From: Blakeslea trispora
Taxonomy: Eukaryota; Mucoromycota; Mucoromycetes; Mucorales; Choanephoraceae
Reading direction: 5' to 3'
NCBI GenBank assembly: GCA_025331445.1
Contig: JAIWNE010000115.1
Location: 1-64,000 of the forward strand
DNA length: 64,000 nucleotides
Shown: positions 37,050-60,651 of the stretch, one piece after another
How the letters are laid out: each line of letters starts with the position of its first letter
Position numbering within the stretch: position 1 is the first letter of the stretch
Notes under the pieces: model-generated
Told to the model about the DNA's origin: nothing
The model's database searches: none
What the model saw: the letters and a program-made list of their open reading frames with translations, nothing else
Program-made: the position numbers and the translations under genes

Positions 37050-37177
37050 TGTTTTGTGTTTGGTTTTTTTCGAAAAAGAGTCAAAAAAGTAAAACTATTT
37101 TCGCTTTTTATTTCCATTAATTGAGCTTGTGACTGACTTGTAATTTATGGGAGGAAACTTTATTTAGAAAAATGAAA

Positions 37178-37425
37178 CCTGACAGTTGCCGAAGCGAAGA
37201 CTGAAAATGTGGTACTAGGCTTTCTAGCCACGCTTTATTTTCAATATAATAATAGTAATAATATTTAGACTTCATTCTTTACATCTTTCTAGCAAGCTAG
37301 TGTATCTATCTATATCTTTTTTTTTTCATTTGTCTTTGGGAGGTGTGCCTAATAGCCAATCAATCCATGATTGTTGTTGAGTGGGTCGTATCACATTTGA
37401 AGTCTTCGCTTCGGCAACTGTCAGG
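37178..37425. repeat. 25-bp inverted repeat at the DIRS 3' end
   Basis: CCTGACAGTTGCCGAAGCGA... at 37178-37202 is the perfect reverse complement of 37401-37425. The inner copy lies inside the recombinase C-terminal coding sequence (encoding NLTVAEAK), the outer copy near the element end. Flanking CACATTT blocks extend the symmetry imperfectly. DIRS elements carry terminal and internal complementary regions used for circularisation, which is a reasonable reading of this pair. Confidence 0.7.
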
Positions 37426-39173
37426 TTGCTCGTCGTTCCTAAACCAACCCTTGTTGCCTCCGCTCCGACTTCAAATGTGGTACTGTTCTCCGTATTATCT
37501 TGTAGAATAGATTGAGCGATTGCTGTGCTATTTGTGGTTGCCTTGATCGGTTTGTAGTAGTGTTTCTCGAACACGTTGGATCTTTGGCTCCAATTGCCGT
37601 GTGTTTTGATTGCCTGTATGGAGTGACCATTCTCCACTGCCTTTGTGCTCGCTGCTGCACGAATCGAATGCGCCTTGTAAACAGACGTATCAACACCAGC
37701 TTCTTCCATGTGTTCCTTGATCCAATTGGCAACTGTTGCTGGCTTAATCGAACTAATCTTGTCTTCTTCATCAATATAGGCCAGGAAAAAAGTATGATCC
37801 TGGGGAAGTCTTGATCGAAGAGAAAGTGTTTTCTGATGAAATAGGTGAGCTGTCTATGCATTGTAATTGTACAGTCTTGATGGGTGCCTCCTTCACCTTT
37901 TGAAAGTGCATTGTCAGTCTTGTAGCTCTTCCATCTTCTAAATCAAATAAGACGTGTGATGTTTTGGGGTTGTAGTGATATAAAAGAAAAATAGAGTAAG
38001 ACAAAGAAAGTACTTTGAGAATGTTTGTAGTGTTTTATTTCTTGTTAAGACTGGAAGAAGAGTTTCATAAGTTATCACTACAACTACTATTTATACATGT
38101 CACAGTTATTTATAGCTTGTACTAAATTAGTGTACTTAGTCTATATGGTTACATCACTCTCATCATTTACTTGTCTTTATATGACTTAATTAGATGAATG
38201 AAGTTATGGAGTGATTGAGTCGGATTCTGTATATTGAGAACCTTATTGACTTTACTTCAGATGCTTTATTTAGTAAGGATTTACAGGGATTGATTTCATT
38301 ATGTCTGATGTTATTATCCTTATGACTTATTTGGTTTACATGTTATCTTATTGTCATTGTTGAGACTTAAATGTGCTCAGATCACCACAAGACGTCTTTG
38401 AATTTCAGTTTCCCCAATTCCGAACGTGGTCTAGCTAGAGTTGCTAGTTCTATCACTAGTAGCGTCTTTCGTTGTAATAGGTGTAAGTTTAGATCTTGAA
38501 TGCAATTTTTTCTTGATCAAGGTAGTTAATAGATTGGTGTCCCAAGTCTTTGATTGATGTTCTTTTGGGATTCGAATATCTGTGTTCCGTTTTGTCTTGA
38601 AAAATTGAGCTATGATAGTTTCGTCAGCGAGATCTCCTTTATTCGGGTGTACTATCTTCCACACCGAAGAAATTGATGCTCTCATAGTCTTAAGTTGAGA
38701 ATGTGAATAGTGCTTGTTCTCCAGAAAGTAGTTGAGGGCTGCTATCGGCATGTATTGAGTAGGATCTATTGGGGTGTTTGTTTTTTACACCACTCTACAT
38801 ATTTCTTCCAGCTTCTATCATAATTGTCATTGGTGGAACTTCTATTTGCTTTGGATAAGTATTCAATAGCGTCAATACTTAGGCCCTCCTCCTGTTTCGT
38901 TCTCCTGATAATTTCCATGCGACTAAGGTCCACTGGTTCAGTTGGAACGTGAATGGCTTTGCTAATTTCTTCATTTTCATCAACATTGGCCACCAATGTT
39001 GTGATGTCCAGTGGGGTGTGATCAACACGATTTTCGGTGTCTTGTCTATGTTTATCTTGTGTAGAACATGTGGGATCAGTTTCCATGGTGGGAAGCAGTA
39101 TAGGTCTGATCTCTGCCACGATTGTTGGAATGCATCCGTTGATTGGGCATTCGGATCCGCTCGGAAGCTCCAA
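37326..39173 (-). pseudogene. DIRS tyrosine recombinase, interrupted
   Basis: Site-specific recombinase that would integrate the circular DNA of the DIRS element. The N-terminal SAM-like part begins in the frame ending WKKYVEWCKKQTPQ and continues, one frame off, at PIAALNYFLENKHYSHSQLK; an A6 run at the shift suggests a single-base indel. A second frame change precedes LLVIELATLARPRSELG, which carries the first catalytic Arg region. After a 435-bp LTR insertion (37955-38389) the frame resumes with VLFDLEDGRATRL. The C-terminal catalytic block is present: HSIRAAASTKAVENG (H-x-x-R), then HGNWSQRSNVFEKHYYKP (H/W and the nucleophile Tyr). The tail ends GTPPKDK. Confidence 0.85.
37955..38389 (-). 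mobile_element. Solo LTR in the DIRS recombinase (TSD AGACG)
   Basis: 435-bp insertion starting TGTGATG and ending ATCACCACA, with 5-bp target duplications AGACG at 37950-37954 and 38390-38394. Removing insert and one copy restores the recombinase context around the word encoding KDV. The ends resemble the LTR at 49083-49548 (both end in ATCACCACA), so the two belong to related families. Orientation is inferred as minus from TATAAATA-like sequence followed by AATAAA on that strand. Confidence 0.85.
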
Positions 39174-39385
39174 TAGGTTTGTAGCTGGTGGTTTTCTCTG
39201 GCCGCAAACGCGTCAACTCTCAATTGTCCCCAATTGTTCTGAATCTTCCTTGGGATCACCGCTTCGTACAATGGATTCATTGTCCGTCTGCTCAGCTTGT
39301 CCGCATCTATATTCTTTATACCTGCAATGTGTTGATATTGTACTTGTAGTCGGTGTTTGTTGCAGATTTCTTGAATCTGGACTGC
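38879..39385 (-). pseudogene. DIRS RNase H C-terminal part and downstream conserved region
   Basis: Continuation of the RNase H domain interrupted at 39386-45191 by a MULE, a Tc1 and a short DIRS island (43639-43656). It encodes LAVQIQEICNKHRLQVQYQ, then HIAGIKNIDADKLSR (RNase H end motif) and the conserved DIRS region GQLRVDAFAARENHQLQTYW and SDLYCFPPWKLIPHVL. Joined to 44996-45191 across the insertions, the frame is continuous. Confidence 0.8.
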
Positions 39386-39734
39386 TAGATCTTGGTGAAT
39401 ACTTGGCGCACTCCGGTAGAACACTCCGGTGGCTTAGATATTATAGGTAGTGGCTTATGAGGACGTCCTCATTCTTAGTTATGCTAGTAATAAAATATGT
39501 GTGTAACACTCCACTAGACATTGTTGCATAATTATTATGGATTGAAAATCCGAAGACAAAGTAGCTTGTTTGAATTCGATTGAAAGTGTGTTGTTAATTT
39601 ATATGAATAATTATGAGTTAATAAAATAAAGAACAAAAAAAAAGTAAAAGAGAAAGGGTTTGTCTAATCTAGAAAAAGTACTTCACTATTGCCATTATCT
39701 GTCATGAAAATTAATAAAAGGAACTTGCAGTTAT

Positions 39735-40634
39735 TCAATGTAATCTTACCTGGTTTTTTTCTCTGCTTTGAAAGAACAAATAATGATTCCAGAAGGTGCG
39801 CTTGAAATTAGGAGAAATAGCAAGAGACTCACATGCACTTTCATACAGACTGGGTTGTGGCAATGGCCAAGTTGGTTTGATTGCTCTTTTCATGCTTAGA
39901 GTAATGAAATGATTGTCATTAACTCTTTGCATAAGCAGAGGCATCTCTTTCTTCTTCTTGGTTTCTTGCTTGACAATCAGGGGCACAAAAGTACATGGTG
40001 GCGTGTTCATGTACTTTTTCTCTGCATAGGTAGCCACTAACCTTTGGAATGTGTCAGCGGCTAACTGTGCACATCCTGGTAAGGTAAACCAGTAGTCTTG
40101 GCCTGCATAAGTAAGCGATTTGTCGACCTTTTGGCAACCAACTGTGGCTTGCAAACCAAAACAAACGATCAACTTCAGCTCTTGGTAATCTATGAACCCC
40201 TTCAGGTGCTTCTTGTAAAAGCCTGTGCTTTCATCTTTGCCCTCATCCATCGTCAAGAGAAAGTCTCTCATCATCATCTTCACCTCCCAAAACTTCTCTT
40301 CATCGCCGTACAACTGCACTGCTAAAGCTCTAAAGCCACAGAATCCGTCAGCACGTACATTGATAGCAGCAGTGTACCAATTCTTTTCTATAGATGGATG
40401 TATCTGCTCGATAAGAGACAGATACTCCATTTCTTCTTCTTTCAACAACTCATCATCACTCTGGCTTTTTTCGACTTCTTTTCTTTCTAATTTTACTGAA
40501 GATACAAGTTTTAGATGCGAGTTAATAGAAGCCAGAGTATTAGTGAGTAACATACCTTTTATCTTTTCATTGTCGCTTGTCTTCTGTTTTTTATCCTTTT
40601 CTGCCTTTTCTGCCTTTTCTGCCTTCTCATCCAT
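39735..40634 (-). CDS. OTU-like cysteine protease domain of the MULE
   Basis: Predicted deubiquitinase-type domain at the C-terminal end of the MULE protein. The catalytic Cys box is INVRADGFCGFRALAVQLYG (Asp-Gly-x-Cys), and the matching His box is RVNDNHFITL near the C-terminus, the spacing expected of OTU domains. The intervening sequence has MMRDFLL and the YYxP-like region seen in transposon-borne OTUs. A 60-nt intron-like segment (GTATGT...CAG, about 40500-40560) lies before the domain. The coding frame upstream (40559-41023) meets this frame with a one-base shift near 40625, so either a splice junction or a small frameshift joins OTU to the transposase. Stop at 39735. Whether the OTU is a separate polypeptide is undecided. 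Confidence 0.8.
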   Translation of the reverse strand: MDEKAEKAEKAEKDKKQKTSDNEKIKGMLLTNTLASINSHLKLVSSVKLERKEVEKSQSDDELLKEEEMEYLSLIEQIHPSIEKNWYTAAINVRADGFCGFRALAVQLYGDEEKFWEVKMMMRDFLLTMDEGKDESTGFYKKHLKGFIDYQELKLIVCFGLQATVGCQKVDKSLTYAGQDYWFTLPGCAQLAADTFQRLVATYAEKKYMNTPPCTFVPLIVKQETKKKKEMPLLMQRVNDNHFITLSMKRAIKPTWPLPQPSLYESACESLAISPNFKRTFWNHYLFFQSREKNQVRLH

Positions 40635-43437
40635 CTTCTCTTCTTTCCTCTTTCTTTATCAGCCTCCTTCAATTTTTCTTTGGTAATCTCAATACCAATT
40701 TTGTTTCTCTTTGAAAGTTTTGGCCTTCCTTTGTGAACACTAGCCAGAGTAGGTGCTTTCACACTACTGATATCGTTTGGAGCTAATCTTTCAATAAGCT
40801 CCTCCATACTATCAAGAATGTCTTGTTTGTCTTGGTATGTCTTGCTATTCAAGAAAACTTCGTCTAATTGGTTTCGCAAGTGTTCGTACTCAATAGAAAA
40901 TTCTTTTTGAACTACATCTTGATATTTTGTTGAGACAATCCCTTCAGTAATTGCTCTAGTTTCAGGATGACCAACTTTTTGAACTAAAAAAATTGTTAGT
41001 CCATAGTCGCGATTCATAAACATTTATTTATCATTATTATCGTACCGTCTTCGTTCATGAAAAAGATGTGCCATCTAGGATGAACCAAGTCAAGCTTGAC
41101 TTGTCCGTGTTCTTCGACACATTTGACCAGCTCGTGTCGGCAAGGCAATTTCCATACCTTGACAAAGCAAGAGCAGACAGGACTCAATATGCCTTCTTGC
41201 TTCTCTTTTAGTCCTTTGACTAATTGATTCTTTACTTTGATTAATGCGAATTTAGTGATAGCTCTGTATATAGGCTTGAGCATATCACTAACTTCACTAG
41301 TAAGAAGAGAGACAGGGATAGACATACTTTCTCTCTCCATTTGAGACTTCAGGTAGTCCTCCTTCAGACTTGAAATTAGCAATTGTTGAAAATTATAAAC
41401 ATGTAGTAAAATTTACCCTTATCTTGTACCATTCATCAATTTTGTCAGTCACTGGACCCAGCTTGCCTTTTGACGAGCCAATATAGCCTTTCATTGCTGA
41501 ATGGGTTCCCTCTACTCTGTTTGTAGACCTGTTGTTCATATGAGGATGCTTGTTTGCATAATAGCTTCCCCATTGAACTTCTACTTTCATCATCCTTCAT
41601 GTAAAATAGAAACAAATTATTGAGATTATTTCTGAATTGAATATGAACAGCACAACTTACAAATCGAAGTATTCTAGGCATGTGTTTTTGTTGATCAAAA
41701 GCCCCTCCTGGTTCAAAAAATTCACGTATGCTTTTTTGGCTTCTTCATAGCCTTCTTTCGTGGTACAACCACGAGCAATTGCAAAAAGCAAGTTTCTGTG
41801 CTCTGCCTCATAATTGTCACGAATATCCACTAAGCAATGACAAGATATTCAGATTTTGGTTTAGATTTCATTAAAGTATCAATTGATTATTTCGCTTACC
41901 AGTAAAATTGGGGTTAATTTCCTTCAAAAACTTATCTCTGAAATGTCGTTCTATATGAATGTAGCAGAGCAATTGAGAAGACTCAGGAAATACATCACTT
42001 AAAGCCCCTTTTAAAGCAGCGTCATTGTCAGTTACAAAGACACTAGGCAAGTCGAACTGCTCAGCTGCTGGTCCAGATGGCCAAACAATTTCTCTCAATT
42101 GTTCTAAAGCCCACTTGTAGTTGGACTTCGTCTCTCTTTCCATCCAAGCGGCAGCCACAGGAATAGTTGCCAATTGCTGTGGTCTTTCTCTACTAGCAAC
42201 CGTTCCAGCAATGACAAAATTGACAAGAGCATACAAATGACAGTTGCTCTTGTAAGTGGCATCTACAACGACAGACTCGGGAAGCTTGCGCAATTCTTTA
42301 ATTGCACTGTCTCTAATAAAGAAAACAGCCGTGATTCTGTTTTCTGAATTGGTAGTGTAACGAACATTGTATTGTTTGCGTTGCAAATCAGTAACAAACG
42401 AAGTCATATCAGAACCAGAGCGGAATTGCTGTTGCATGTTTTCCAAATCCTTCTTTTTCATATAGTTGATGTTTTTGACTTGAAGCATCTTTTTTTAAGT
42501 GTCACATTAGTCAAGCTATTTTTCATTCTAGTAATAGTTCCCAAGAATATACCTCTTGAACAACAGAAGGTTTGTTTTTTTGCAATAGCAAAATTGCCTC
42601 TTCAAAAATATCAGCATCAAGCTTTCGATGCAAGTGATAGGTGAGAGGATCGTTCACAATACGATGATTATGACTGCCATCAACACTTCTCACAGTGACA
42701 ACTTTTCTAACAGGGCATAGTCTAGCCTCAATAACACAAGGACAATTGAACTTGAGGCTTTCTTTCTTGTATTCTTTGGACTTTGAATTTTTGTTACTGT
42801 TGACAAGATCAACATCAGTAACTTTCTTGGAGCGTCTGTAGTCCTTTCCATGTCTACAAATCATTCTAATTCTTTGCTCTTTTTGACTTGATTTGTCAGT
42901 TGTGATTGGGCAATTATATTTTTTGCCGAATTCTTGAGCACGGATACGTAATTCATCAATATCCGAAAATTCTGTGCCGACAGAAAACAATTTCTCCATT
43001 TCTTCTTTCATCAATGCATAGACCTGCAAGTCCTTATCCGTGCAATGAAGGAAACTTTCCTTACTGGTCTTTCCTTCATACTCTTCCTCATCGGTTGAAT
43101 AATCTTCCAAGTTGCTTTCATACTCGACACGTTTACTGACAAGTAGCTCTAATATTTATTTTTTATTTTAAACACAACAGGCAACTTCATATTCCAGAGA
43201 ATCTAACATAAAGTGCTATTACACACCTTCAGACTGAATTTCAGATATATCTTCAACATCGACTTCAGAATCAGAAGTGTCAATAGTGATGACTTCTTCT
43301 TGAATCTCGAGATGACAACTCGTCTCAACTTTGACTTGCTCGTTATCAAAAGGTTTGATGTCGATACCAGCACTACAGATAGATATTTCATCGTCCGAGG
43401 CTTCAATATCAATATAAAGCAAACTGTCTTGATTCAT
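40635..43437 (-). CDS. MULE transposase (FAR1-like, DDE, SWIM finger)
   Basis: Mutator-type transposase in several exons from ATG 43437. Exon 1 (43437-43228) is acidic; exon 2 starts at 43148. The N-terminal FAR1/WRKY-GCM1-like zinc region includes RIRMICRHGKDYRRS, FNCPCVIEARLCP and SVDGSHNHRIV. The catalytic core follows: ESVVVDATYKSNCHLYAL (first Asp), SVFVTDNDAALKGAL (second Asp), CYIHIERHFRDKF and NRSTNRVEGTHSAMKGY (Glu). A SWIM zinc finger (CSCFVKVWKLPCRHELVKC) comes next, then PRWHIFF. The remaining part is basic and leads to the OTU domain. Short GT-AG introns separate the blocks at about 42500, 41850, 41600, 41400 and 41020. No in-frame stop seen in the core. The protein should bind the 115-bp TIRs. 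Confidence 0.85.
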
Positions 43438-43658
43438 TTATAAAATTATTAAATAAGTGTTGACAAAGGGCTTTCCAGGGCCCATTGCTTCATTGACTTG
43501 ATCTTTTCAGGTACATGTTACACACATATTTTATTACTAGCATAACTAAGAATGAGGACGTCCTCATAAGCCACTACCTATAATATCTAAGCCACCGGAG
43601 TGTTCTACCGGAGTGCGCCAAGTATTCACCTAGATCTTGTAGTATGGTGGAGCTTGTA

Positions 43659-44993
43659 CAGTCAGAACGAAAAAAAAGGTTAATTTTTTTGAATTCCGAC
43701 AAGGTCATCATGAGGGATGAGGACCATTTTACTTGTTGTTCAGTCAATACTTCTTAGTTAATCGAGCTTTCTTTTTTCGGATCATACACTTTTAAATGTC
43801 TAATTAATAAAATTATAAAAGAATTGGGGCAAAAGATATGTTTTATTTTTGGATTGCTTGCCTAGGAGTCAATTGAGCCTCCTTTGGCAGCAATCACTTT
43901 TTTCATGCGTGATGGCATGCTTGAAACAGTTTTGTCGAGGTATTCGACAGTGATACTGTTCCAAGCATCCACCAGCATCTCCTCATTGGTTTTTTGGCCC
44001 TTAAGTCTGGACCAGTCTTGATGGAAGCGTCGCTTCATTTCACTCCAGACGTTCTCAATGGGGTTGAGATCAGGCGATTGAGCAGGCCACTCTATTTTCT
44101 CAACCCCATTGAGATCCCTCCACTCCTTGGCAGCTTTGGCTGTGTGGATGCTGGCGTTATCTTCCATCAAGACCGATCCGGGATTGCTCTGGAGAAAGCC
44201 CAGAAGAACAGGCTTGTAGACAAGGTCTACAAAGTCCTGGCTTGTTCTTCTGTCCTTTGGCAGGAACACCAACTCGGACTTGTTGCGACCACATATGGCC
44301 CCCCAAACCATAAAGCTGGTTCGGCCACTCTTGAAAGAAGGCTTCAGGCAGTCCTTGTCGTATTTTTCCTGTGGCAATCTCCAGACTTTTTTTTGCAAGA
44401 TGTCCTTGCCGATTTCCACGCTGGATTCATCTGTCCAGACGACTTGCTTCCATTGCTCTATTGTCCAGTTTCGGTGAGCTTTGGCAAATTGAAGCCTCTT
44501 CTCCATATGGGCTTCCTTTAGAAAAGGCTTCTTTGCCGCAACTCTCTTGTTGTAACCCAGACCATGCAACTCCTTTGCGATGGTTTGGGTGTGCACCTTT
44601 ACTGGCAGCTCTTGCTGCAAAGAAGCAAGCGTGACAGATCTGTCCTTTTGGATGGCTCTCTTCAGAACTCTCTTGCTACGTTCGTCAAGAGATTTGGGTC
44701 TTCCAGAGCCCGCAGCTCTTTCAACGGTACCTCTGGCTTGAAATCTCTTGATGGTCCTGTTAACAGTGACTGGGTTAATTCCAAGTTCTTGGGCAATTTC
44801 GATCTGTGGTTGGTTTCTTTGCCAACGATCAACGATGATAGCTTTGAGTTCAGTGGATAATTGAGACATATTGTGAGTTTCAAGGAATTTTATTAAGAAA
44901 GAGAGGTAGAATGATAGGAATGTAAGACGTGTCATACATTTACCCTTCTTTTACGGAGTCTAAAAAAATTAACCTTTTTTTTCGTTCTGACTG
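43659..44993 (-). mobile_element. Tc1-like transposon, TA target duplication
   Basis: 1335-bp element in the DIRS RNase H, 28 bp from the MULE. It is flanked by TA at 43657-43658 and 44994-44995. Terminal inverted repeats of about 33 bp begin CAGTCAGAACGAAAAAAAAG and match by eye without a mismatch. It contains one intact transposase gene. A potentially autonomous copy. Confidence 0.94.
43862..44935 (-). CDS. Tc1/mariner transposase (DD34E), apparently intact
   Basis: Cut-and-paste transposase of 357 residues from ATG 44935; an alternative ATG at 44869 (MSQLSTELKAII) removes a hydrophobic 22-residue head and is probably the true start. The N-terminal bipartite helix-turn-helix domain is clear: QPQIEIAQELGINPVTVNRT, then the GRP-type linker GSGRPKSLDERSKR and second HTH. 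Catalytic motifs: VVWTDESSVEIG (D), SVLMEDNASIHTAK (D) and SPDLNPIENVWSEMKRR (E), with 34 residues between the last two acids, i.e. DD34E as in Tc1. Uninterrupted and with paired TIRs. Confidence 0.95.
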   Translation of the reverse strand: MTRLTFLSFYLSFLIKFLETHNMSQLSTELKAIIVDRWQRNQPQIEIAQELGINPVTVNRTIKRFQARGTVERAAGSGRPKSLDERSKRVLKRAIQKDRSVTLASLQQELPVKVHTQTIAKELHGLGYNKRVAAKKPFLKEAHMEKRLQFAKAHRNWTIEQWKQVVWTDESSVEIGKDILQKKVWRLPQEKYDKDCLKPSFKSGRTSFMVWGAICGRNKSELVFLPKDRRTSQDFVDLVYKPVLLGFLQSNPGSVLMEDNASIHTAKAAKEWRDLNGVEKIEWPAQSPDLNPIENVWSEMKRRFHQDWSRLKGQKTNEEMLVDAWNSITVEYLDKTVSSMPSRMKKVIAAKGGSIDS

Positions 44994-44995
44994 TA

Positions 44996-45191
44996 CCTCC
45001 TGACTTCGTTGTGTATTTTATCGCCGTTATGTTGTCGCACATAATCTTGATCTTCTTCCCTTCGAATTCTTTTGCGTGTAACTGGAGAGCAAAGAGAATT
45101 GTCTTCAACTCCCGTACATTGATCGAATGTTCGCTTTCTTGTGTTGTCCAGTGGCCTGTTGTCTGTAGCATCGGCGATGATACTCCCCATT
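44996..45191 (-). pseudogene. DIRS RNase H N-terminal part
   Basis: A 196-bp DIRS island between the Tc1 and the 45197 LTR. It encodes WGVSSPMLQTTGHWTTQESE, NVRELKTILFALQLH and IMCDNITAIKYTTKSGGT, the RNase H Glu and Asp-Asn motifs. The frame continues from the RT piece (...HVDASQVE) across the LTR, and into the 43639-43656 island across the Tc1. Confidence 0.8.
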
Positions 45192-45196
45192 CTACC

Positions 45197-46073
45197 TGTC
45201 GTATTTTGGCATATATAGAAGCCAGAACGACTTATAATCGGAAATTCAATTAATCATCATCAAAGGTTATTTTGACAGATAATGTCAAAATAACAATAAA
45301 TCAAATAATGTTCGCAAAGTTGGAAAACTAAAATCATTTCAGATATTACCAGAGGTAATTCTGAAATCAAACATCTAACAAGCATTGGTAAAAAGCGATG
45401 ATATGATATATAAAGCGTTCAATGTGCCTAGCTAACACATTGAAAGCATGATCAGATTTATAGTCATTGACTCTCTTCTCATCAATACTTGAAATAGCTA
45501 TATGACATGACACATGTGATAGCAGGATGGTTGCATAGGCCTTATAATACCAAGGTAGCAGCATCTAACAAAACAAGCAATGATTCTAGAGATTTCGTTA
45601 TAAGAAAAGACTAAATCATTACTTGGATAAAGATAGTTCTGAGACATAATTACAAAGGGCTTGTCTATCGTTATCACCTAATCTAAACTGATCTTAACAT
45701 CCAACGAAACAAGTGAACAAGTATGAAACAGTTATGCCTGATATATTGAAACACTAATCATGATTAAACATATCTTGTCGAGCATAATTATTATCTCTCC
45801 AAGATATAAATCAAGTAAACAATATATCTCCACCTTATTCAAGGCGGGGGATGAAATCTGGCTACAGCCATCTTTCCATTAAGGTGACCAGTCATCCTAG
45901 TAGGAAAACTGCTCAAACAGATAAAATTATAACGGAGTGATTGATTGAAACCGAGATAGAAATAATATATAAACACAACATGGACTTGCAGTAGAATTAG
46001 TTCCCTCTCTTTCTTTTGAATAAAAAAATCGAGTTCCCTCTCATTAAATCTATCTGAGACTGCAAATATCACA
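45197..46073. mobile_element. LTR-like insertion in DIRS (TSD CTACC)
   Basis: 877-bp segment beginning TGTCGTATTT and ending AATATCACA on the plus strand, with 5-bp duplications CTACC at 45192-45196 and 46074-46078. Removing it and one copy joins the DIRS frame perfectly (DASQV to EWGVSS). TG...CA ends and a 5-bp duplication point to a solo LTR, although it is longer than the others here and has no clear TATA/AATAAA order. No coding content. Confidence 0.8.
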
Positions 46074-46078
46074 CTACC

Positions 46079-47786
46079 TGTGATGCATCTACGTGTGTCA
46101 GGATGTCCTGTTTGAATTCTGTTATCTGCCTGATATGAAGACCGTTCTTTGTTGTCACAAACTGATGCCACCATTGTAGTTCTTGTAGGCTTGTAGAGGA
46201 CAAGGGACATGGGTTTTCCCAATTCTGCTTGTGTATATGGAGATTCTTGGCTAGATCTCGTTGTAGATATCGTATGTGGAGAAGAGCTTCTCCTATCGCT
46301 GGTATCAGTGCTGTCATCTTCCCCAATAAATTGGCAATCCATCTACAACTCCTTTGATAGGGATTTTGAACAGCTTGTTTGATTCGTTGGATCAACTTCA
46401 ATATCTTTTGTTGTGGTGCTAAAATCTTCATTTGTTGTGTGTCGAAAGTAAATCCGAGGAAATCCTGTGTCTTCAATGGGGTTAGAGAGCTTTTCTGAAA
46501 ATTTATGAGAAAACCTAAGTCTTGTAAGTGTTGAATCACTTGTTCTGTAGCCTGTAATGTTTCTTCTTTTGTTTTGCCAAGGATGCAATGATCGTCCAAG
46601 TAGTATACCAATCTTATGCCTTTCTTTCTTAAATACTCGACAGCGAAGCGCATGATCTTTGAGAAAACTAGTGGTGCGGAACTGATTCCAAATGCTAATG
46701 TCTTGTAGTTGTAAATTACGTTTTTGTGTTCGAATGTCAAATATTTTCTTTATGCGGGATGGATTGGGACTGTACTGTTTGACAGCTAAAAAAAATAATA
46801 AAAAAAACACAAGTAGATTTAAAGGGGTTTATTCCAATACAAAAGTAAACTGAATCTTATCTAATCCTACTTCTAAATTATCTCTCTATTTATACTTTTC
46901 GAAAGTTAGGATGATTTATAATATCTAGTTTGCTGTTGATCGTATATTAACATGATTCCTTCGATGTCGATATCCAGAATCTATGATAGTTCAAAGTACG
47001 CATCTAAGGTGTGGCGAGAATACTAACTTGGATAGCCTTTCGATGTCAGACTCGAAATTGGAAGCGTAAAGAATAATTATCATTATATTGAAATAGAAGG
47101 ATTTGATTGGCTGATTTAAGAATATAGGTATCTATAGTTGTGTAGTTCACTACAGGGACTACCGCATAGGCGTCCTTTAAATCCAGTTTGCAGATATAAT
47201 CGTTGTGTTCTATTATATCTCGCAAAGCTGGTATTCCTTCCATCTTGAAATGTTGGCATTGTAGAAATTGGTTTAGCTTTCTGCAATCCAAAATTGGTCT
47301 TCTTTTGGTTGCCTCTTGGATGGTGAAAAGATTGAAAAGAAAGTCTCGATTTTGAGTTTCTGATATTTCTATCATGCCTGCCTTGAGAAATTTGTTGACA
47401 GCTTCGTCTTTTGCCTGAAGATCGGATTGGCTTAGTTTTAATGGATATGATTTCCAGGGAATTGGTTTGGTTGTAAATTGAAGTTTATACCCTTGGGATA
47501 TGACTGAGAGAGGCCATTTGTGATTGGTTATGTTCTTCCAGTTCTGTAAAAACATTTTCAGACGACCGCCTGGCAGGAAGCCATCGTCTGGTATTAAATA
47601 ATTGATATTTTTTGTTGGTTTTATATTTTCTATTGTTTTTGTTAGTTTTGTATTTTCTACTGTTTTTTGATTTAATAATTTTATTGAGTCTGATGGTTGG
47701 AATCTTTGTTGTTGTATTGGATGGTTGATTGGTGGTTGTAATTGTTGTAGTTGTTGGAAGGACCGCCACCTCGGCCCCTGTTCCAA
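46079..47786 (-). pseudogene. DIRS reverse transcriptase, interrupted
   Basis: RT of the DIRS element in two pieces around a 384-bp LTR. Piece 1 (47155-47786) encodes DGFLPGGRLKMFLQNWKNI, FTIQEATKRRPILDCRKLN and YICKLDLKDAYAVVPV (first catalytic Asp). Piece 2 (46079-46765) gives the HP block, RKYLTFEHKNVIYNYKTLAF and YYLDDHCILGKT (YLDD active site), then thumb sequence DLGFLINFQKSSL. One TAA, just downstream of the VPIHPA motif, interrupts piece 2 where a serine is usual. The start overlaps the end of the gag-like frame by about 100 nt, as DIRS ORFs often do. Confidence 0.87.
46771..47154 (-). mobile_element. Solo LTR in DIRS RT (TSD GGGAC)
   Basis: 384-bp insertion. Plus-strand ends TGTACTG and CACTACA, flanked by GGGAC at 46766-46770 and 47155-47159. 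On the minus strand it shows TATAAATAGAG followed by AATAAA about 60 nt later, i.e. U3-R-U5 order, so the LTR is on the minus strand. Excision restores the RT sequence. Confidence 0.9.
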
Positions 47787-48505
47787 AAATTTCCTCCTCC
47801 TCTGAATCCTCGATGGGCATTTCCTCTGCCATTGAAGAATCCACGGGTACGGAATCCACCTCTGGTTGGGCTGTTGTTGGGACTGACTGCTGCTTGAACG
47901 ATTGATCGTTGGTAAGTGGCTTCATTGTATGCATGGACAAATTCTGCATCAAAGGTATCTCTCTTGTTGGTGTTGTCATTTTTCGCTCCGAGATGCTTAA
48001 TGCTGTTTGGCAGATGTAATGCGTCAACGGCAAATTCCCTGGCTTCATCATCTTGGAGTGAAGCTTCTGTCCACGAGAAAACGGAGAGATTGTGGGAAAT
48101 CTTAATTGCTTCGTTGAGCAATTGATTGATAGTGGATTTGTTCAAGCTGTCTTGTTGTTGCTTGATAAATTCAAGTCTGTTGTAGAGATCTGTTGCTCCT
48201 CTTGCAGCTGCTCTTGTGTTATCTACAATTTTGTAAAGGCAATTAATGGACTTGATAGTTTCTGTTTTGTGATTTTTACATCTTTGGATGTAATTCTTGT
48301 TGAGTTGTTCTCCAACGGTGATATACTCGTGTTGGAATTTTGGTTGTTTCTTCTTAATCCGCTTGACAAAGTCGATTCTGTCTGCCCTTGAGAGTTCGTT
48401 ACAGCTCTCAGCAATCTCCAGTGGCAAGTCATGGGTTGCATAGAGATCTTCTGTGGCTTGCTTTTCTTCGTTTCTAAGTTGGTTACAGTGCTACCAAACT
48501 TAAAG
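47681..48505 (-). pseudogene. DIRS gag-like protein
   Basis: First protein of the DIRS element, recognised by position and composition rather than by a strong motif. The frame is open from about 48427 (LEIAESCNELSRADRIDFV) to 47681. It includes a helical region (LYNRLEFIKQQQDSLNKS) and an Arg/Gly-rich nucleic-acid-binding tail (RGGFRTRGFFNGRGNAHRGF). No ATG is found in frame at the start, and a frame change near 48500 (MKNFKVLTK... reading on in another phase) suggests an upstream disruption. It overlaps the RT frame. Confidence 0.65.
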
Positions 48506-49082
48506 CTCCTACATTTTGTCAAAACTTTGAAGTTTTTCACAGCATCCCAAACTAAATAAAATACAATTCTAAAGCGATAACATTGTTCGTTGATCTTTTC
48601 TGAACTAGTTTATCGCCTCAGTTTTTTTTTTCCTCTGCAAAACTTTTGTGCAGTAAGGTCTCAAAGTTTGGCGGTTTTTAAATTTTCTGGCTGAGGTATA
48701 GTGGGGAGAGGTCAATATTGAAAAGAGCAGGCATACCTATAAAAAAAATCAAGTACCGCTATTCGGGGATTCAAATAATAGCCAGCCAATTAGAAAGCTA
48801 GGCTATTTTTATATCGCGTTCGTGTAAGTATTAATTCGCGTCTGTTCGCGTTTGAGAAACCGCCTTTTGTTTACATTTACTATTATTAACTATGCCTCGA
48901 TTAAGCAAAAGAGCTCAACATTTCAAATCCCAAAAGAAAGACGAAAAAGGAAAACTTGTGAAGAGAGATGAAATTTCTGTTGAAACTTCAACAGTTGATA
49001 ATGTCGAAGATTGTCAACTTTGGAAAACTACCGTGAGCACCTCGTGCCTTGACCGCTTGCGAGACAACAACAGCAGCATCAG

Positions 49083-49548
49083 TGTAGAGATTGGAGTAAG
49101 TTGAGAATAAAAAGACAAGAAGCAAGTACTTTGATAATCCTTTTATTCTGATAAAGAGAGATGATTTTCTATCTAGTAAAATTACAACGACTATTTATAC
49201 AAATTGAGTGAGGATTGGTTTATCCGATTATTTAAGCTGAGAGTAGATACGATAGAGGATGAGTAAGTCTTGATGACTTGCTTTTGATATAAGAATAGTT
49301 ATTGTTATTGATGTCTGACTAGTTTGGAATAAGTAAGGCAGCTTGATTGGATCAATCAGGGAATTGATCTCCGCTGTCATTTATATTTTTGTAGGTAATA
49401 TATTTGAGTCTGAATATATGTGCGTTTCAAGTTGAATCCCTGAATCTGTTTCAATTCAGCTCAGGGTATTTCTTTATATGGAATACTTCTTTTATCAAGA
49501 TCTTTTTATAGAACTTCTTTATGATTTAAATATGGTGCAATCACCACA
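49083..49548 (-). mobile_element. Solo LTR in the DDE transposase (TSD ATCAG)
   Basis: 466-bp insertion, TGTAGAGATT...ATCACCACA, flanked by ATCAG at 49078-49082 and 49549-49553. Removing it restores the frame (DNNSSI to RKRKGHY). TATAAATAG and AATAAA in the right order are on the minus strand. Its first 316 bp (plus strand) recur almost unchanged at 60335-60651. Confidence 0.93.
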
Positions 49549-49828
49549 ATCAGAAAAAGAAAAGGCCATTATATGAAGAACTCCACTACCACTAAGTGGA
49601 GAAAAACCAAGGAAGCTCAAAAGGTAGATCCCCGAGCAACGCTCTTCAACTTTGGGATTACCTTAGAGGAAAAACCACTTCCTGTTGCCGAGGTAGAGAT
49701 GAGTGCCTCTCAAAAGGAGTTGGTCTTGATTGAGAAGTCTTTGGATTCCATCAAAAAGATCAACAAGCCCGTTATGAACAAGAAGAATGACGGAAGCTCT
49801 TTAGAATCATACAATTTTTTTCGTTATA

Positions 49829-50780
49829 CAGTTGCTGGAACCTGAAATTCGATCACTTTTTAAAATCGAAACTCAGTGTTAAAGATGCATAAAATAAAAG
49901 ACATGTTAGTGATTCAAGACGATGTCCAATTAAGCTCTATTTATTGTCATACTACCTTTAGCATCTATGACGGCTTGACAGAGTTCCTTCGTGTTGTCCA
50001 CCAAGCAAACAAGTAAGTCGCTGCTGATCTTACTCCACTATTCCAGCAGCAATTCCTTCAATTCTGTAGTGTTATGAACAGCATGGCGCCTGCTTGCTAT
50101 GCGCTTCTCAAGAGCCCACCCCAAATCCTCAATGGGGTTTAAATCTGAACTTTGGGCAGGCCAGTACTCAAGCCTCTTCATCAAATGACGGCTCTTCCAA
50201 AGACACGCAGAAGCTTCTGTATGACACGTAGCCCCATCTTCTTGTAACAAGAAGCGTCTGTCCTTCTATGCTTGGGATTTCTAAGTACCAGGGTTGAAGC
50301 TCTGTTGTTCAATCGACATGTTCCTTGGCCCTATTCGAGTCGAAACTCCTTGTGCTTCTTCATCAAGGCAGGCTTGTGAGATGCGCAGTAAGATTTGAAG
50401 CCTAGCTGACGAAAACAGCTGACGACAGTCTTTCTACAGACTGTAACTTTTAATTTCTCCAGCTCGTGTTTGATGCCATCAATGCTAAAGAAAGTATTGT
50501 TTGTTACAATTCAATCGAGCGTGTCTCATTGTTTTCTCATTAACTTTTGGGGTTGAGCCAGGACGAAACGCTGGACAGAAGTGTGCCTTTTTTCACGATG
50601 TTGTTTACAGTCGCGTAAGAGAACACCATTATGCGTGAAATCTCTCTCAAGGAATGCTAGCGCGATTCAACCAACACACTCCTCAATAAGTTTTCTCTTC
50701 ACTCTTGTTGTATTTTTCACGGCTGCTTGTATATCAATAGTAGATATATTTGAACTGAATTGTTTTTTGTAAAAGAATGA
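49829..50780 (-). pseudogene. Tc1-like relic
   Basis: Decayed transposase on the minus strand. QEDGATCHTEASACLWKS and WPAQSSDLNPIEDLGWALEK carry the second D and the E of the Tc1 triad; the rest is frameshifted. The left border is at TA 49827-49828 followed by CAGTTGCTGGAACC; a matching right end is not found. It separates the head and body of the DDE transposase above. Confidence 0.75.
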
Positions 50781-52681
50781 AATATTGATTGTGGTCATTA
50801 TCATGCCAGATATGCCTTATGTAAGGCCCGATCGAATTTCTTTTTCCAGTGACTGTATGTCTGTTCAAGCATATTTCGAAAACAGGCTTGCAGGATTGAA
50901 GAAGGGCAAAGCGTCAGAAGAAGTTGCCAGGCATTTATGGCCTCACAACAACGAGGAATATCGTACTAAATGCATTGTAAAATGGGCAAAGGAATTCTTG
51001 GAAGCAGGTGAGCTTTCAGATCACTCTCAGGACGCTCACATCAAGCGTGAGTCGTTCTTGAGTGACAACGATGTCAAAATGATGTCGTTACAAAAGTTTT
51101 AAGAGATGAAGCCAGCTGAGCGTACTGTTTTGGCTTTAAAGCAGTACATCGAAGACGAAGTTGCTCCCTCTGTTCTTGGTGTTAGAGGCACAGTTTCCGA
51201 GTCTACTGTGGCCAAGTACCTCTATAAATGGGGGTACAGCTACAGCAAGAACCAAAAGACGATATTCTTCGATGGCCATGAGCGTCAAGACGTCGTAGAA
51301 TATCGCAACTCCTGGACCAAAAGAATAATGGAGTATGCCACCAAGTCGGAATTCTATGATGGTGAAAATCAGGAGGAGATCTTGGAGCCTAACTTGGAGG
51401 AAGGTGAGAAAAAATTGGTCTTTGTGACTCAAGACGAGTCCACATTCTATGCCAATGACGGCAAGGATACCCTCTGGATGTCAAAGGATGAAAACTACAT
51501 CCGAAAGAAAGGGCCTGGCTTCTCCATCATGGTTAGCGAGTTTCAGTGCCCTTGTCATGGAACAATGAGAATTCGTGGTTGGAGCTCTAGAAAGCTGTTT
51601 AAAGCTGGGGAGAGCAGAGATGGTTGGTGGACAAGTAAGGATATGGTCGCTCAGTTAAAGGATCATGTCATTGGGCTGTTTGAAAGCTTGCACTCAGATT
51701 GCCGAGCTGTATTCCTCTTTGATAACAGCTCAAATCATGGGGCTTACAGCGAAGACGCACTGGTTGCAAGTCGAATGACGCTCAATGAGAAACCATGGCC
51801 TTTAACTGAGCGATATCAGTTCAAGGATACAACCATTGAACTCTCTTCTGGTCAGCTTTTGAAGCAATCGTTTTTCTCTGACAAGGAGATTTCATCCCAT
51901 GACTCCATGGGTAGACCTAAAGTAAAGCATGTCAGATACTTCAAAGGTAAGAAAAGTTTAAGTACTCTTATTATAATGTAACTTAGTCTGACTCATTGGT
52001 TTAAAGGTATCAAAAGAATTTTGGAAGAACGTGGACAATGGCTTTGCGACTTGAACGGAAAGACTTGGAAGATGCGCTGTGGTAGTCCCGAGCCCGGAGT
52101 CAAGTCGATGTGTTGTGCATTGCATTTTCTCGAAAGCAGACTAGACTTTCTGGCACAAAAAACTGCATTGCAAGAAGTTGTAGAAGATGCTGGCCACATC
52201 TTCGAGCTATACCCCAAGTATCACTGCGAGTGTAATTGGATAGAAATGTATTGGGGTATGGCTAAAAGAGAGGCCCGACTTAGATGTGATTACACATTTA
52301 AGTCGTTAGAAAAGAATATTCCCCCGTTCTTGGATAAAGCTGGAAATATCGCTCAAATCAGGATGTATTTTCAGCGCTGTATGAACTATATCGAAGCATA
52401 CAGCAAGCAAGAACGCGGGAGAGAAGTGGCAGCTGATGTCAAGAAGTTTGTTGAGAAGAGATACCTTTCTCATAGAAAGGTAAAAATACCCAAAGACCTT
52501 GAGTAAGCTCCTTTTTTTTTTAATAAAATTACTAGTAAAAATATCTAGGACATGAGTTCAATCCCTGTAGAGTGCGATTTTTTGGGAGGTCAATATTGAA
52601 AAGATTTTAAAGTTTGGGAGGTTTAAGCTCAGTGGCACGTTAATAATTTGCTTAAGCTCTGTTTCGGTATAGAGTCTTGGT

Positions 52682-52969
52682 TGTTGTGGGTGTGATATTC
52701 ACGGTACAATTGATAACAACAATAAATTAATCAGACCCAAAAGAAAGTTGTCTTTATTCAATATACATTTTCTAGCTCTATTTATACTAATGATGGATCC
52801 CGCATCTTAACTGAGTGTTTACCTTACGTTGGATCACAACGTACTTTCTGTTTATTTGTATAAGAACGTATCTCACCGTTAATCAACATGTCCATATATG
52901 TTAACGACGTGATGGCTAATCTGACTTTATAATTTGTTATTGTTCCTAAAAAGGACAATGTATACAACA
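52682..52969 (-). mobile_element. Candidate solo LTR
   Basis: 288-bp segment with TGTTGTGG at the left and ATACAACA at the right (6-bp inverted ends). The minus strand has TATAAATAGAGC then GAATAAAG, as in the other LTRs. The flanking 5-mers (TTGGT and GTTGG) do not match exactly, so the call is tentative. Confidence 0.55.
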
Positions 52970-53027
52970 GTTGGGAGTCATTGCTCATGTCACCAGTCAT
53001 AGTTTATCCACGATGCGCGGCTTAGAA

Positions 53028-53099
53028 AGATGCAAAGAATGGAGTTTAAATTGTATTACTATTATTATATTGAAAATAAAGCGTGGCTAGAAAGCCTAG
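53028..53099 (+). repeat. Inverted copy of the DIRS terminal sequence
   Basis: About 72 bp matching 37210-37285 in opposite orientation with about six differences, including 40 identical bases ending in GCGTGGCTAGAAAGCCTAG. It is the expected inverted terminal repeat of the DIRS element. The chromovirus LTR starts at the very next base. Confidence 0.8.
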
Positions 53100-53261
53100 T
53101 GATGTTTCGTAAGCTAGATGCATCATTAAATCAAGACATTTATTTAAGACACAATCCTACTTTGTGTCACCAAGCTCAATTTATATTGACAATCTCATTC
53201 TACACTGAATAAAACCCTCTCTTAATCTTGTTTAACTCATCTTGACTTAACAGATAAATTA
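53100..53261 (+). repeat. 5' LTR of the chromovirus
   Basis: 162 bp, with AATAAAACCC near the right end as a likely polyadenylation signal. It directly follows the DIRS terminal repeat copy. Confidence 0.8.
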
Positions 53262-53301
53262 TTTTTTTTAAACACGCAAAAGTTTATTCAGTATTAAGAA
53301 A

Positions 53302-56300
53302 ATGTCCAACAACAACAACAACAACAACAACACCAAGAAGGCTAATGATGCTCATCGCGTCAACAACGACCCTAGTAGTCATCGTGCCCCTGTCACTACT
53401 AGCATCGACTACTCTCTTAATGAGTTTCCTCCTTTGCCTCCTGCTTCTCCTCGTCGCGATCCTATCGCTGCCACGAACATCAGAAACAGTGGTAATGCTT
53501 ATGGACAAGAAAAGCCCAGCGAGTCCATGGATATTGACACATATACTGGCAATGCCCTGTCATCTCACGATGTCGCAGGAAGAACTTCCCCTCCGTCTGT
53601 CGAGGATGAAATGTTTGAAGATCTCGGTGACAATGATCTGATAACTGAGAAGTCTTTCAGAGAGACTATCTCTGATTTAAAAAAGAAGTTGACAAAGCTT
53701 TCTTTCGTTCTAGCTAACGCTAAGAAAAGCTCAGACATTGATCGCTTGAGAGCTGAAAAGGATTTCGTTAAGCAACGTTATCTGCAAGCCCTTGAAGATT
53801 TTAAGGATCTTTTTGGAGACAATGAATCTACAATGTCGGCATTGACTCCCTCTACTGGAAGCAATGTTCCTGTGAACCCTGTCGTTCATCAAACAATGAG
53901 TTTAGTTCCCTCTAATCTCCCATACTTTCAGTGGACTGGCTTCATCACTGATACCAGTCGTCAGTCTTACAAAACACCTAAAAAGTGTTTTAATGCATTT
54001 GAAAATGTATTGAATTCCCACTCTTTGTCTGTGGAGGCCAATTGGCAAAGACTTCTTCTCGTTTCGGCCCCCGATAATCTTATCGAGTGGGTTAAAGACT
54101 ACTCACAGTCTCATCCCAACACATCCTGGAGTGCAATCAAAAATGCTATAGCAATCAAATTTGGGACCAGTCCTGAAAGATTGCGACAATTAGCCACGGA
54201 CAGACTTTATCGTCTTGAGTTTCGTAGATACGAGACAATGTCACAATACGTGGCAAGATTCCGTGAAATTGCTCAAGAAGCGATGATCACTGAAGAAAGT
54301 ATGTTGAAGCATTGTATCATGCAACCAGTTCCTCGAGAATATCACATAGAGGTATTGAGAACTATAAAGATCACCAAAGATCCTAATGCTCAGTCATTGG
54401 ACTTTACCATCCAAGCGTTGCTGGATGCGTATGATATCCTCAACGACCTTGACGTCAAAAAGAAGTTGCCTACTTCTCATAAAATAGTGCACTCCAAAAA
54501 GGCTCAGCCTTCCACACCTTACTCTTCCTCTCGTCCGAGCAAATTCCGCTCTGAAACCTCTTCCTCTCGCCATAAGCCTAGTCCTTATTGCAGCTATCAT
54601 AACTCTCACGAGCATGATACCGCTGATTGCCGAGCAAAACAAAAGAGAGCTGAACGAAAGCTGCATTTCCAGCAGTTCAAATCTAAAGGTAAGAAACGTA
54701 CATGTTTCACCTGCAAAGGCCCATGGAAGCATGGTCATGTCTGCAAAGGCATGAGTAAAGGTAAACCCTCCAAGACCTCCAACAACAAAGACCCTGTGCC
54801 AAGACCTACTCAATCGGATGATGAAGGGGATGTCTTCATGGATGAAGGCTCCTCTGATAATGAAGACCACAATCTTCAATTCGCTGCCGCTGACTTTGAC
54901 CCCAAGGGCAAAGGCAAAGCTGACTGTAAGTACACTGTCACCACAGATGACTACTTTGCACAATCGCCAAAAGGCCTGTTAGCTGATAAGTTTATATATC
55001 TTCCGTTGTCAATAGAGAATGTGAAAACTTGGGCATTGCTAGATTCAGGCTGCTCTTTTTCTTCTATCTCTCCTTCTCTGGCAAAACACTTAAATTTAGA
55101 AATAAATAAAAGTGAAGGAAATATTAAACTTATCAATAGCAACACGGTTAAACGTCTAGGACATACGTCAGACAAATTAGAGGTCACATACAATTCCAAA
55201 ACAATTCATTCACGGTTTGAAGTATATAATCTGTTTAATAACATACATGTGTGCATTGGCATGGATTTGATATATCTTTTGGGTATTGAAATCTCCAATA
55301 TCGCCATGGATTGGGAAAACAAGGTTGGTCCTGTTCTACCTCCTATTGATCCAAACCCATCTACACCCAACAATGATCCTTTTGGTACACAGACCGAGCG
55401 TAAGCAAATGATGGATCAAATCGAACCATTTATACAAGCCAACAGAAATATCCCTGTTGCAAACTACTGTAATATACCAGGAAGTGAAATACGCCTTCCT
55501 CTGAAAAAGGGTATTACATCAGCTTATCGTAGACAATATGCAATCAAAGAATGTCATTTAGAAGCTGTTGAAAAACAAGTACAAGAATGGATTTCGGGCA
55601 ATGTCATTGAACGCGCACCTCCAAACAATCCTTTCAATTCCAGTTTACTCACTGTGTTAAAGCGATCCCCTGTAACAGGTGAATTAGATCCAAAAAAGGT
55701 ACGTACTGTACTTGATTGTCGTCTTGTAAATCAAAGCCTTGATCCCGCACAAATGGATAAATTTCCATTACCCTTGATCAGCACTTTGCATCGTAAATTG
55801 AGCAAATTCTCGCTCTTCACTACCATCGACCTTAGTGCATGCTTTCACAGTTTTCGCATCCGTCGATGTGATAGACCTGTTACTTCATTCACGGCTCCTA
55901 GCGGCCTGCAATATCAATTCAAACGAGCTCCATTTGAATTGCTCAACGTATCCTCAGTGGTACAACGAAGCATCACCAGTCTCTTTGCTGACTTGGATTA
56001 TTGTGTTCATTACATTGACGACATCTACGTTGCTACCGATGATAGTATCGACAACCATGTTCGTTGTCTACAAACAGTCTTATCTCGACTCACTCGATCC
56101 AATCTTCGCATCAATCATGAAAAACTCAATCTCATGCAGAAATCAATCTTTGTTCTAGGATTTCGACTTTCTCATGATGCACTTACTCTGGATATGCGCA
56201 AGGTTACCAACGTATTATCTTGGCCTGAAACGGTCCAAAACTCGAAAGAGTTAGGTCATCGACTTGGTGTGATCAATTACTTTCGTGAGCATGTACCTCG

Positions 56301-58419: not shown

Positions 58420-58704
58420 ACATCTGTGAATTAAGCGCAATCAGTACGGAGAACCTTTTTTACCCAGCTTCATCTTTTTTCCTCACGAAAGGTTTTTGAT
58501 GAAATGGTTTTTTTTAATGGGCAATTCCAACGTACATACATGCAAAGAACAAAGCATACAATTTAACAACTATCTAATTCGCATAAGCATTCACATATTA
58601 TTCAAGAGCGATTTATCTGACTTCAAGAATCCAACACTCAATCAAGGTCCATCTAAATGTTATTCAAATCTTAACTAAACGGTTTTTAAGGTGGTCCAGG
58701 GTGA

Positions 58705-58866
58705 TGATGTATCGTAAGCTAGATGCATCATTAAATCAAGACATTTATTTAAGACACAATCCTACTTTGTGTCACCAAGCTCAATTTATATTGACAATCT
58801 CATTCTACACTGAATAAAACCCTCTCTTAATCTTGTTTAACTCATCTTGACTTAACAGATAAATTA
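58705..58866 (+). repeat. 3' LTR of the chromovirus
   Basis: 162 bp, nearly identical to 53100-53261. Preceded by a purine-containing stretch (AAGGTGGTCCAGGG) that may be the polypurine tract. Confidence 0.8.
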
Positions 58867-60334: not shown

Positions 60335-60651
60335 TGTAGAGATTGGAGTAAGTTGAGAATAAAAAGGCAAGAAGCAAGTACTTTGATAATCCTTTTATTC
60401 TGATAAAGAGAGATGATTTTCTATCTAGTAAAATTACAACGACTATTTATACAAATTGAGTGAGGATTGGTTTATCCGATTATTTAAGCTGAGAGTAGAT
60501 ACGATAGAGGATGAGTAAGTCTTGATGACTTGCTTTTGATATAAGAATAGTTATTGTTATTGATGTCTGACTAGTTTGGAATAAGTAAGGCAGCTTGATT
60601 GGATCAATCAGGGAATTGATCTCCGCTGTCATTTATATTTTTGTATGTAAT
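60335..60651 (-). repeat. Truncated LTR, same family as 49083-49548
   Basis: 316 bp almost identical to the left two thirds of the LTR at 49083-49548, starting TGTAGAGATTGG. Similarity stops at GTAAT, where the next element starts; the rest of this LTR probably lies beyond that element, outside the window. Confidence 0.85.

What the first reader, a model, noticed from the sequence alone, without database searches (positions are those of the whole stretch)
37178..48540. A DIRS retrotransposon dissected by five insertions, each with its target duplication
LTR (AGACG), MULE (TAGATCTT), Tc1 (TA), LTR (CTACC) and LTR (GGGAC) all sit in one DIRS coding region, and its frames rejoin when they are removed. 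This gives an ordered record of transposition in one locus and independent checks on the ends of five families. The MULE and Tc1 lie 28 bp apart, which suggests a preferred region.
Basis: seen in the sequence. Interest (0 to 1): 0.75.

Follow-up and report, generated by a model that had tools for sequence, protein, structure and literature searches.

The report
DIRS element split by seven insertions
An old, broken DIRS retrotransposon in what looks like a Mucorales-type fungus was cut up by at least seven later transposon insertions, a well-preserved but ordinary example of mobile elements piling up on top of each other.

Summary
A minus-strand DIRS is interrupted by a solo LTR (37955-38389, AGACG), a MULE (39394-43630, TAGATCTT), a Tc1 (43659-44993, TA) and two more solo LTRs (45197-46073, CTACC; 46771-47154, GGGAC). 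Each family has full-length copies elsewhere in this genome ending on the same bases, with their own target duplications; other DIRS copies lack the inserts. The sixth insert carries a nested solo LTR and a Tc1 relic. Two interpretations fail: none of the five nests in another, so they are no ordered record (private substitutions only separate LTR1 from MULE and Tc1 clearly), and the 28-bp spacing is within chance (14-22%). The DIRS is also broken by a stop and a 26-bp deletion. Its closest copy (contig C85) has three insertions at other sites; about 70 kb of other DIRS sequence shows one clear case. Best reading: an old dead copy in a transposon cluster. Ordinary.

The parts
37178..37954 (-). 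DIRS, 3' part: left terminal repeat and C-terminal half of the tyrosine recombinase
   Evidence: Phage_integrase PF00589 E=2e-4, below the curated cut-off; 92-94% identical to contig C85; 26-bp deletion relative to C85
37955..38389 (-). Insert 1: solo LTR of a chromodomain Ty3/gypsy family, 435 bp, TSD AGACG
   Evidence: empty site in C85
38390..39393 (-). DIRS: first part of the recombinase frame and end of the RT/RNase H frame (TSDs included)
   Evidence: 94-95% identical to C85
39394..43630 (-). Insert 2: MULE DNA transposon, 4237 bp, 115-bp TIRs, 8-bp TSD TAGATCTT
   Evidence: PF10551 MULE E=6e-16; copies with identical ends; 8-bp TSD in 5 of 5 fetched copies
43631..43658 (-). DIRS: 28 bp between MULE and Tc1 (TSDs included)
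43659..44993 (-). Insert 3: Tc1 transposon, 1335 bp, open transposase frame 43862-44950, TA
   Evidence: PF01498, PF13358; nine other copies at 99-100% over 1-1335; TA/TA in 5 of 5 fetched copies
44994..45196 (-). DIRS: RNase H region (domain named by eye; no Pfam match)
45197..46073 (.). Insert 4: solo LTR, 877 bp, TSD CTACC
46074..46770 (-). DIRS: second half of reverse transcriptase; one in-frame stop
   Evidence: RVT_1 E=5e-14
46771..47154 (-). Insert 5: solo LTR, 384 bp, TSD GGGAC
47155..48485 (-). DIRS: first half of reverse transcriptase and most of gag
48486..52640 (+).
   Evidence: weak DDE_3 E=0.007
49083..49548 (.). Solo LTR nested in insert 6, TSD ATCAG
49829..50855 (.). Tc1-type relic nested in insert 6, TA on both sides, inverted ends 83% complementary over 29 nt (transposase relic named by eye)
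52641..52690 (-). DIRS: gag codons near the start of gag, between inserts 6 and 7 (TA and flank included)
52691..52969 (.). Insert 7 (missed): solo LTR, 279 bp, flanks GTGGG/GTTGG (4 of 5 match)
52970..53099 (-). DIRS: start of gag and right inverted terminal repeat (from 53023)
   Evidence: 94% reverse complement of 37214-37291
53100..58866 (+). Complete chromodomain Ty3/gypsy element, 162-bp LTRs, adjoining the cut right end of the DIRS; flanks CCTAG/ATAGC do not match

Best explanation
A DIRS retrotransposon (4.2 kb recovered, 37178-53099, minus strand) at the edge of a transposon-rich stretch lost function through a stop and a deletion and was hit independently by seven elements of seven families: four LTR elements later reduced to solo LTRs by LTR-LTR recombination, one MULE, one Tc1 and one DDE transposon with a TA target. 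The DDE element then received a further LTR element and a Tc1. A complete gypsy copy now forms the right border, probably after recombination between two gypsy copies, because its ends are complete but its target duplications differ. Shown: borders, target duplications, family ends, empty sites and an open frame at each junction. Inferred: that the DIRS was dead before most insertions, the solo-LTR route, the gypsy-gypsy recombination, and relaxed selection in a transposon-rich place as the cause.
For: Borders and TSDs. Full-length copies with identical ends for inserts 1-5; exact TSDs in 8 of the 11 other (best-scoring) copies fetched for each of the three LTR families, 5 of 5 for MULE and 5 of 5 for Tc1. 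Insert 6: TA/TA in 6 of 7 fetched pairs. Empty sites among 34 other fetched DIRS loci, some overlapping: insert 1, 1 spans, 1 gap-free; inserts 2+3 together, 20 span, 13 gap-free; insert 4, 7 and 5; insert 5, 18 and 9. The gag start split by inserts 6 and 7 aligns without a gap to gag starts of other copies, weakly (L035, 30% identity, E=0.006). Nested LTR absent at 12 other places of insert 6, 7 with an overlap of exactly 5 bases at the site. Private substitutions 6/408, 4/844, 2/341, 2/1329, 3/4201 for LTR1, LTR4, LTR5, Tc1, MULE against about 5-8% difference between the two DIRS sisters. Three insertions at other sites in the C85 sister, TSDs GATCC, GGAAC, GATGT.
Against: Insert 7 has only a 4 of 5 target match. 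The gypsy border has no match, though 1 of 8 other gypsy copies also has none and 1 has 4 of 5, so the lack is not unique. The empty-site evidence for inserts 6 and 7 rests on weak protein alignments, for insert 1 on one sister copy. Of the loci spanning the junctions, 7 of 20, 2 of 7 and 9 of 18 have a gap near the junction, as expected of 66-73% identical copies. Ages rest on few substitutions, and the MULE value on only two other copies. Contig C85 begins one base past the MULE target in the equivalent DIRS position, an unexplained coincidence that could mean the sister is interrupted there too.
Confidence: 0.94

Rival explanations
1. This DIRS subfamily, or its chromatin, is a preferred landing site. 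Chromodomain gypsy integrases (LTR1 family and the 53100-58866 element) and other elements home to it, so insertions cluster beyond what age explains.
For: Seven direct insertions in 4.2 kb here and three in about 1.7 kb of the C85 sister, against one clear net insertion (L015, 603 bp) in about 70 kb of other DIRS spans. Two of the gypsy families encode a chromodomain.
Against: The two loaded copies belong to a diverged subfamily, while groups of unloaded loci give identical scores (such as L010/L011 and L020-L022) and so look like young copies (not aligned with each other), so age can explain the contrast. No insertion site is shared between the sisters. The 28-bp spacing is within chance. 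Most loci were fetched with only 1.5-kb flanks, so long inserts elsewhere could be missed.
Confidence: 0.12
2. Part of the arrangement is an assembly artefact: repeats joined wrongly by the assembler.
For: The genome is in 285 contigs. Another Tc1 copy (C248) sits in the middle of a perfect palindrome with arms of at least 600 bp, which may be an assembly fault. The gypsy border has mismatched flanks.
Against: Matched target duplications at inserts 1-6 and frames that continue across them are not expected from misjoins.
Confidence: 0.04
3. The segments are integral parts of a composite DIRS family rather than insertions.
For: None found.
Against: 1, 20, 7 and 18 of 34 fetched DIRS loci span the sites of inserts 1, 2+3, 4 and 5 without them. 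The segments occur on their own elsewhere.
Confidence: 0.01

Closest known systems
Fungal DIRS retrotransposons of Mucoromycotina (PMC3783388: abstract and passages seen)
   Same: Reverse transcriptase, recombinase-like frame and inverted terminal repeats. That survey found tyrosine-recombinase elements in all four Mucoromycotina genomes it examined and states that most elements found are incomplete.
   Different: This copy is dissected by seven insertions; in the searches made, only one other close copy (C85) appeared in this genome.
Nested transposon clusters, with REANNOTATE as a tool to order them (PMC2672092: passages seen)
   Same: Older elements split by younger ones; order is read from nesting.
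   Different: Here most insertions lie side by side in one host element, so little order follows.
MULE DNA transposons
   Same: MULE transposase domain, long TIRs, target duplication of fixed length.
   Different: 8-bp rather than the commonly quoted 9-bp duplication (recalled), and a C-terminal frame with a weak OTU-protease resemblance.
Tc1/mariner transposons
   Same: Insert 3: Tc3-type HTH, DDE_3, TA target. Insert 6: TA target.
   Different: Insert 6 has imperfect ends and only weak DDE_3 similarity.

Membership tests
DIRS retrotransposon | Reverse transcriptase | tested here: met
   RVT_1 E=5e-14, above cut-off
DIRS retrotransposon | Tyrosine recombinase instead of DDE integrase | tested here: inconclusive
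   Phage_integrase E=2e-4, below the curated cut-off, C-terminal part only
DIRS retrotransposon | Inverted terminal repeats and a complementary internal repeat | tested here: met
   37214-37291 against 53023-53100 at 94%; 37176-37215 repeated in inverse at 37388-37427, 93%
DIRS retrotransposon | Methyltransferase domain found in many DIRS | tested here: inconclusive
   No Pfam match for 38766-39212
MULE | MULE transposase domain | tested here: met
   PF10551 E=6e-16
MULE | Long TIRs and target duplication of about 8-10 bp | tested here: met
   115-bp TIRs; 8 bp at the window copy and 5 of 5 other fetched copies
Tc1 (insert 3) | Tc1-type transposase, TIRs, TA target | tested here: met
Tc1/mariner (insert 6) | DDE_3 transposase, TIRs, TA target | tested here: inconclusive
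   TA/TA in 6 of 7 fetched pairs, TIR match 73% over 30 nt; DDE_3 E=0.007, below cut-off; no Pfam match for 51103-51981
Ty3/gypsy solo LTR (insert 1) | TG..CA ends, 5-bp TSD, full-length relatives with gypsy proteins | tested here: met
   Ends and TSDs; integrase and chromodomain beside this LTR in C26
Ty3/gypsy solo LTR (inserts 4, 5, 7) | TG..CA ends, 5-bp TSD, full-length relatives with gypsy proteins | tested here: inconclusive
   Ends and TSDs met for 4 and 5; gypsy assignment rests on one flank each with sub-threshold Pfam scores. Insert 7: ends met, TSD 4 of 5, internal region not examined

The most novel reading that the evidence does not exclude
This relict DIRS subfamily acts as an insertion sink: elements of several unrelated classes are drawn to it, for example through heterochromatin marks read by gypsy chromodomains, so that both known copies are shredded while other DIRS copies in the genome stay whole.
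Probability: 0.08. Interest if true: 0.45.

Novelty: new member of a known kind. Interest (0 to 1): 0.2.

Why it matters
It gives exact ends and target sizes for about eight transposon families of an unnamed, probably Mucorales, fungus from one locus, checked against other copies. That is useful for annotation. It does not open a new mechanism.

Tried and rejected
Preferred-region claim: simulated and not supported. Time order from nesting: not available for the five listed inserts; by private substitutions LTR1 is older than MULE (Fisher p=3e-5) and Tc1 (p=0.003), LTR4 and LTR5 are older than MULE only weakly (p=0.02, 0.05, no correction for ten comparisons), the rest unresolved. Gypsy 53100-58866 as an ordinary eighth insertion: not supported, flanks do not match and the right flank is not DIRS (by eye). 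OTU domain in the MULE: only a lead; Pfam E=0.02 and 0.17, PDB OTUD5 E=0.15, and the structure model is too poor (pLDDT 39.5), so no fold search was run. Literature: one search listed one paper (the REANNOTATE paper, passages then read), one unrelated paper, five papers (listing only); MULE with OTU gave no paper and one on Ginger transposons (passages). I make no claim that this is absent from print. Insertion density: 33 of 34 loci gave rows, spans 75,185 in all, about 70 kb without the three C85 loci. The script counted 13 positive jumps. I took 5 rows as real: L015 (603 bp) and in C85 6242, 360 and 349 bp, the last reported twice (L002, L039) and confirmed by a TSD. I took the other 8 as register shifts because each comes with an opposite jump of similar size; this is a judgement, not a test. 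In one search a test of insert 3 alone (20 bp on one side) gave 22 hits and 0 spanning, too short to be useful. In one search the C248 frame was read in the wrong orientation and is ignored.

Full report
What was checked. The window lies on contig C19 (positions 1-64000 of 106403) of a 37.2-Mb genome in 285 contigs. Of seven protein relatives found for a frame of the MULE, the named ones are from Choanephora, Rhizopus and Gigaspora, so a Mucoromycota fungus, probably of the Mucorales, is likely (inference). Left of 33 kb the ten frames scanned include host-type genes (calreticulin, a 2Fe-2S thioredoxin-like protein, SET/MYND, NmrA, P-type ATPase pieces) and two transposon frames; from about 35 kb on the frames that got a significant Pfam name belong to mobile elements.

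The five inserts. Each insert was searched in the same genome (lists capped at 40 scored candidates). LTR1 (435 bp), LTR4 (877 bp) and LTR5 (384 bp) have many copies ending on the same bases. Of the 11 other, best-scoring, copies fetched for each family, 8 carry an exact 5-bp duplication of their own directly at the LTR, so they are solo LTRs. For LTR1 two further rows are the two LTRs of one full element at C26:55679-61380 with outer flanks TCAGC/TCAGC, and the protein beside its LTR has an integrase and a chromodomain. The Tc1 has nine other copies at 99-100% over all 1335 bp; 5 of 5 fetched are flanked by TA. The MULE has a copy rounded to 100% at C266 and one at 99% at C73; 5 of 5 fetched copies have 8-bp duplications.

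The host element. The pieces between the inserts are a DIRS on the minus strand: RVT_1 is clear, Phage_integrase is below its cut-off, and inverted repeats are present. Joining at most 120 bp on either side, a reading frame runs through every junction. The RT frame nevertheless has an in-frame stop near insert 5, and the recombinase frame has a 26-bp deletion relative to the C85 copy, so the element is broken apart from the insertions. Of 34 other fetched DIRS loci (some overlapping), 1, 20, 7 and 18 span the sites of inserts 1, 2+3, 4 and 5 without them; 1, 13, 5 and 9 of these are gap-free within 12 bases of the junction.

At 48486 a sixth element begins. It ends at 52640, with TA on both sides in 6 of 7 fetched pairs of other copies. 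Inside it lie a solo LTR (49083-49548, ATCAG) and a Tc1-type relic (49829-50855, TA). Without these it is 2655 bp; eight other copies measure 2636-2669 bp by their coordinates. The LTR site is empty at 12 other places, 7 of them with an overlap of exactly 5 bases. A seventh insert, a 279-bp solo LTR at 52691-52969, has well-defined ends in most of the 39 other places listed but only a 4 of 5 match in its flanks. Between and beyond these two lie the first codons of gag. They align without a gap, though weakly, to gag starts of other DIRS copies (L035, 30% identity, E=0.006). The right terminal repeat follows, to 53099.

The right border. At 53100 a complete gypsy element starts (LTRs 162 bp, 1 difference). 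Its LTR ends are those of the family. Six of eight other copies have exact 5-bp duplications, one has 4 of 5, one has none; the window copy has CCTAG/ATAGC. Its right flank is not DIRS; by eye it resembles a Helitron helicase. Recombination between two gypsy copies would explain complete ends with unequal flanks (inference).

Order and age. Only the nest inside insert 6 gives a strict order. Private substitutions of the window copy were 6/408 (LTR1), 4/844 (LTR4), 2/341 (LTR5), 2/1329 (Tc1, against three copies) and 3/4201 (MULE, against two copies, plus 2 gap positions). LTR1 is older than Tc1 and MULE (p=0.003, 3e-5); other contrasts are weak or absent. The DIRS differs from its sister in C85 by 5-6% in three stretches and 8% in one with gaps counted, so it is probably older than its inserts.

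Is it a preferred site? The 28-bp spacing is expected in 14-22% of random placements. The C85 sister has three insertions of its own with TSDs GATCC, GGAAC and GATGT, none at a site used here, in about 1.7 kb of DIRS. In about 70 kb of other DIRS spans only one clear net insertion was seen (L015); 8 further jumps were judged to be alignment shifts. Groups of those loci give identical scores and look young, and the loaded pair is a diverged subfamily, so age is the simpler explanation.

Verdict. The finding is real and careful, and it understates the number of insertions. It is an ordinary nested transposon cluster.

Noticed in passing
C19:66701-67577 and 68029-68905 (loci L056, L057): Two LTR4 copies in opposite orientation, 451 bp apart, have exchanged target duplications (ATTTA/GATAT and GATAT/ATTTA), the mark expected of an inversion by recombination between the two LTRs.
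   Followed up: partly
C248:36059-38593 (L135, L114, L136): A Tc1 copy sits at the exact centre of a perfect palindrome with arms of at least 600 bp: an assembly fault or a recent inverted duplication.
   Followed up: partly
window 39735-41023; L117:400-1632: The MULE has a C-terminal frame with a DGxCGFRALA motif and a later NH, weakly like OTU proteases (Pfam E=0.02 and 0.17, PDB OTUD5 E=0.15). In the window copy this frame is split, in C266 it is 411 aa.
   Followed up: partly
L039:1 (C85:1): The C85 contig begins one base past the position equivalent to the MULE target duplication.
   Followed up: no
window 35093-35383: KDZ transposase fragment (PF18758 E=3e-20) near the left end of the DIRS; whether the DIRS inserted into a KDZ element was not tested.
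   Followed up: no
window 60335-60651: The first 317 bp of the LTR nested in insert 6 recur at 99.4% and then diverge, beside a frame with a sub-threshold Ty3_capsid match: perhaps a variant or recombinant LTR.
   Followed up: no
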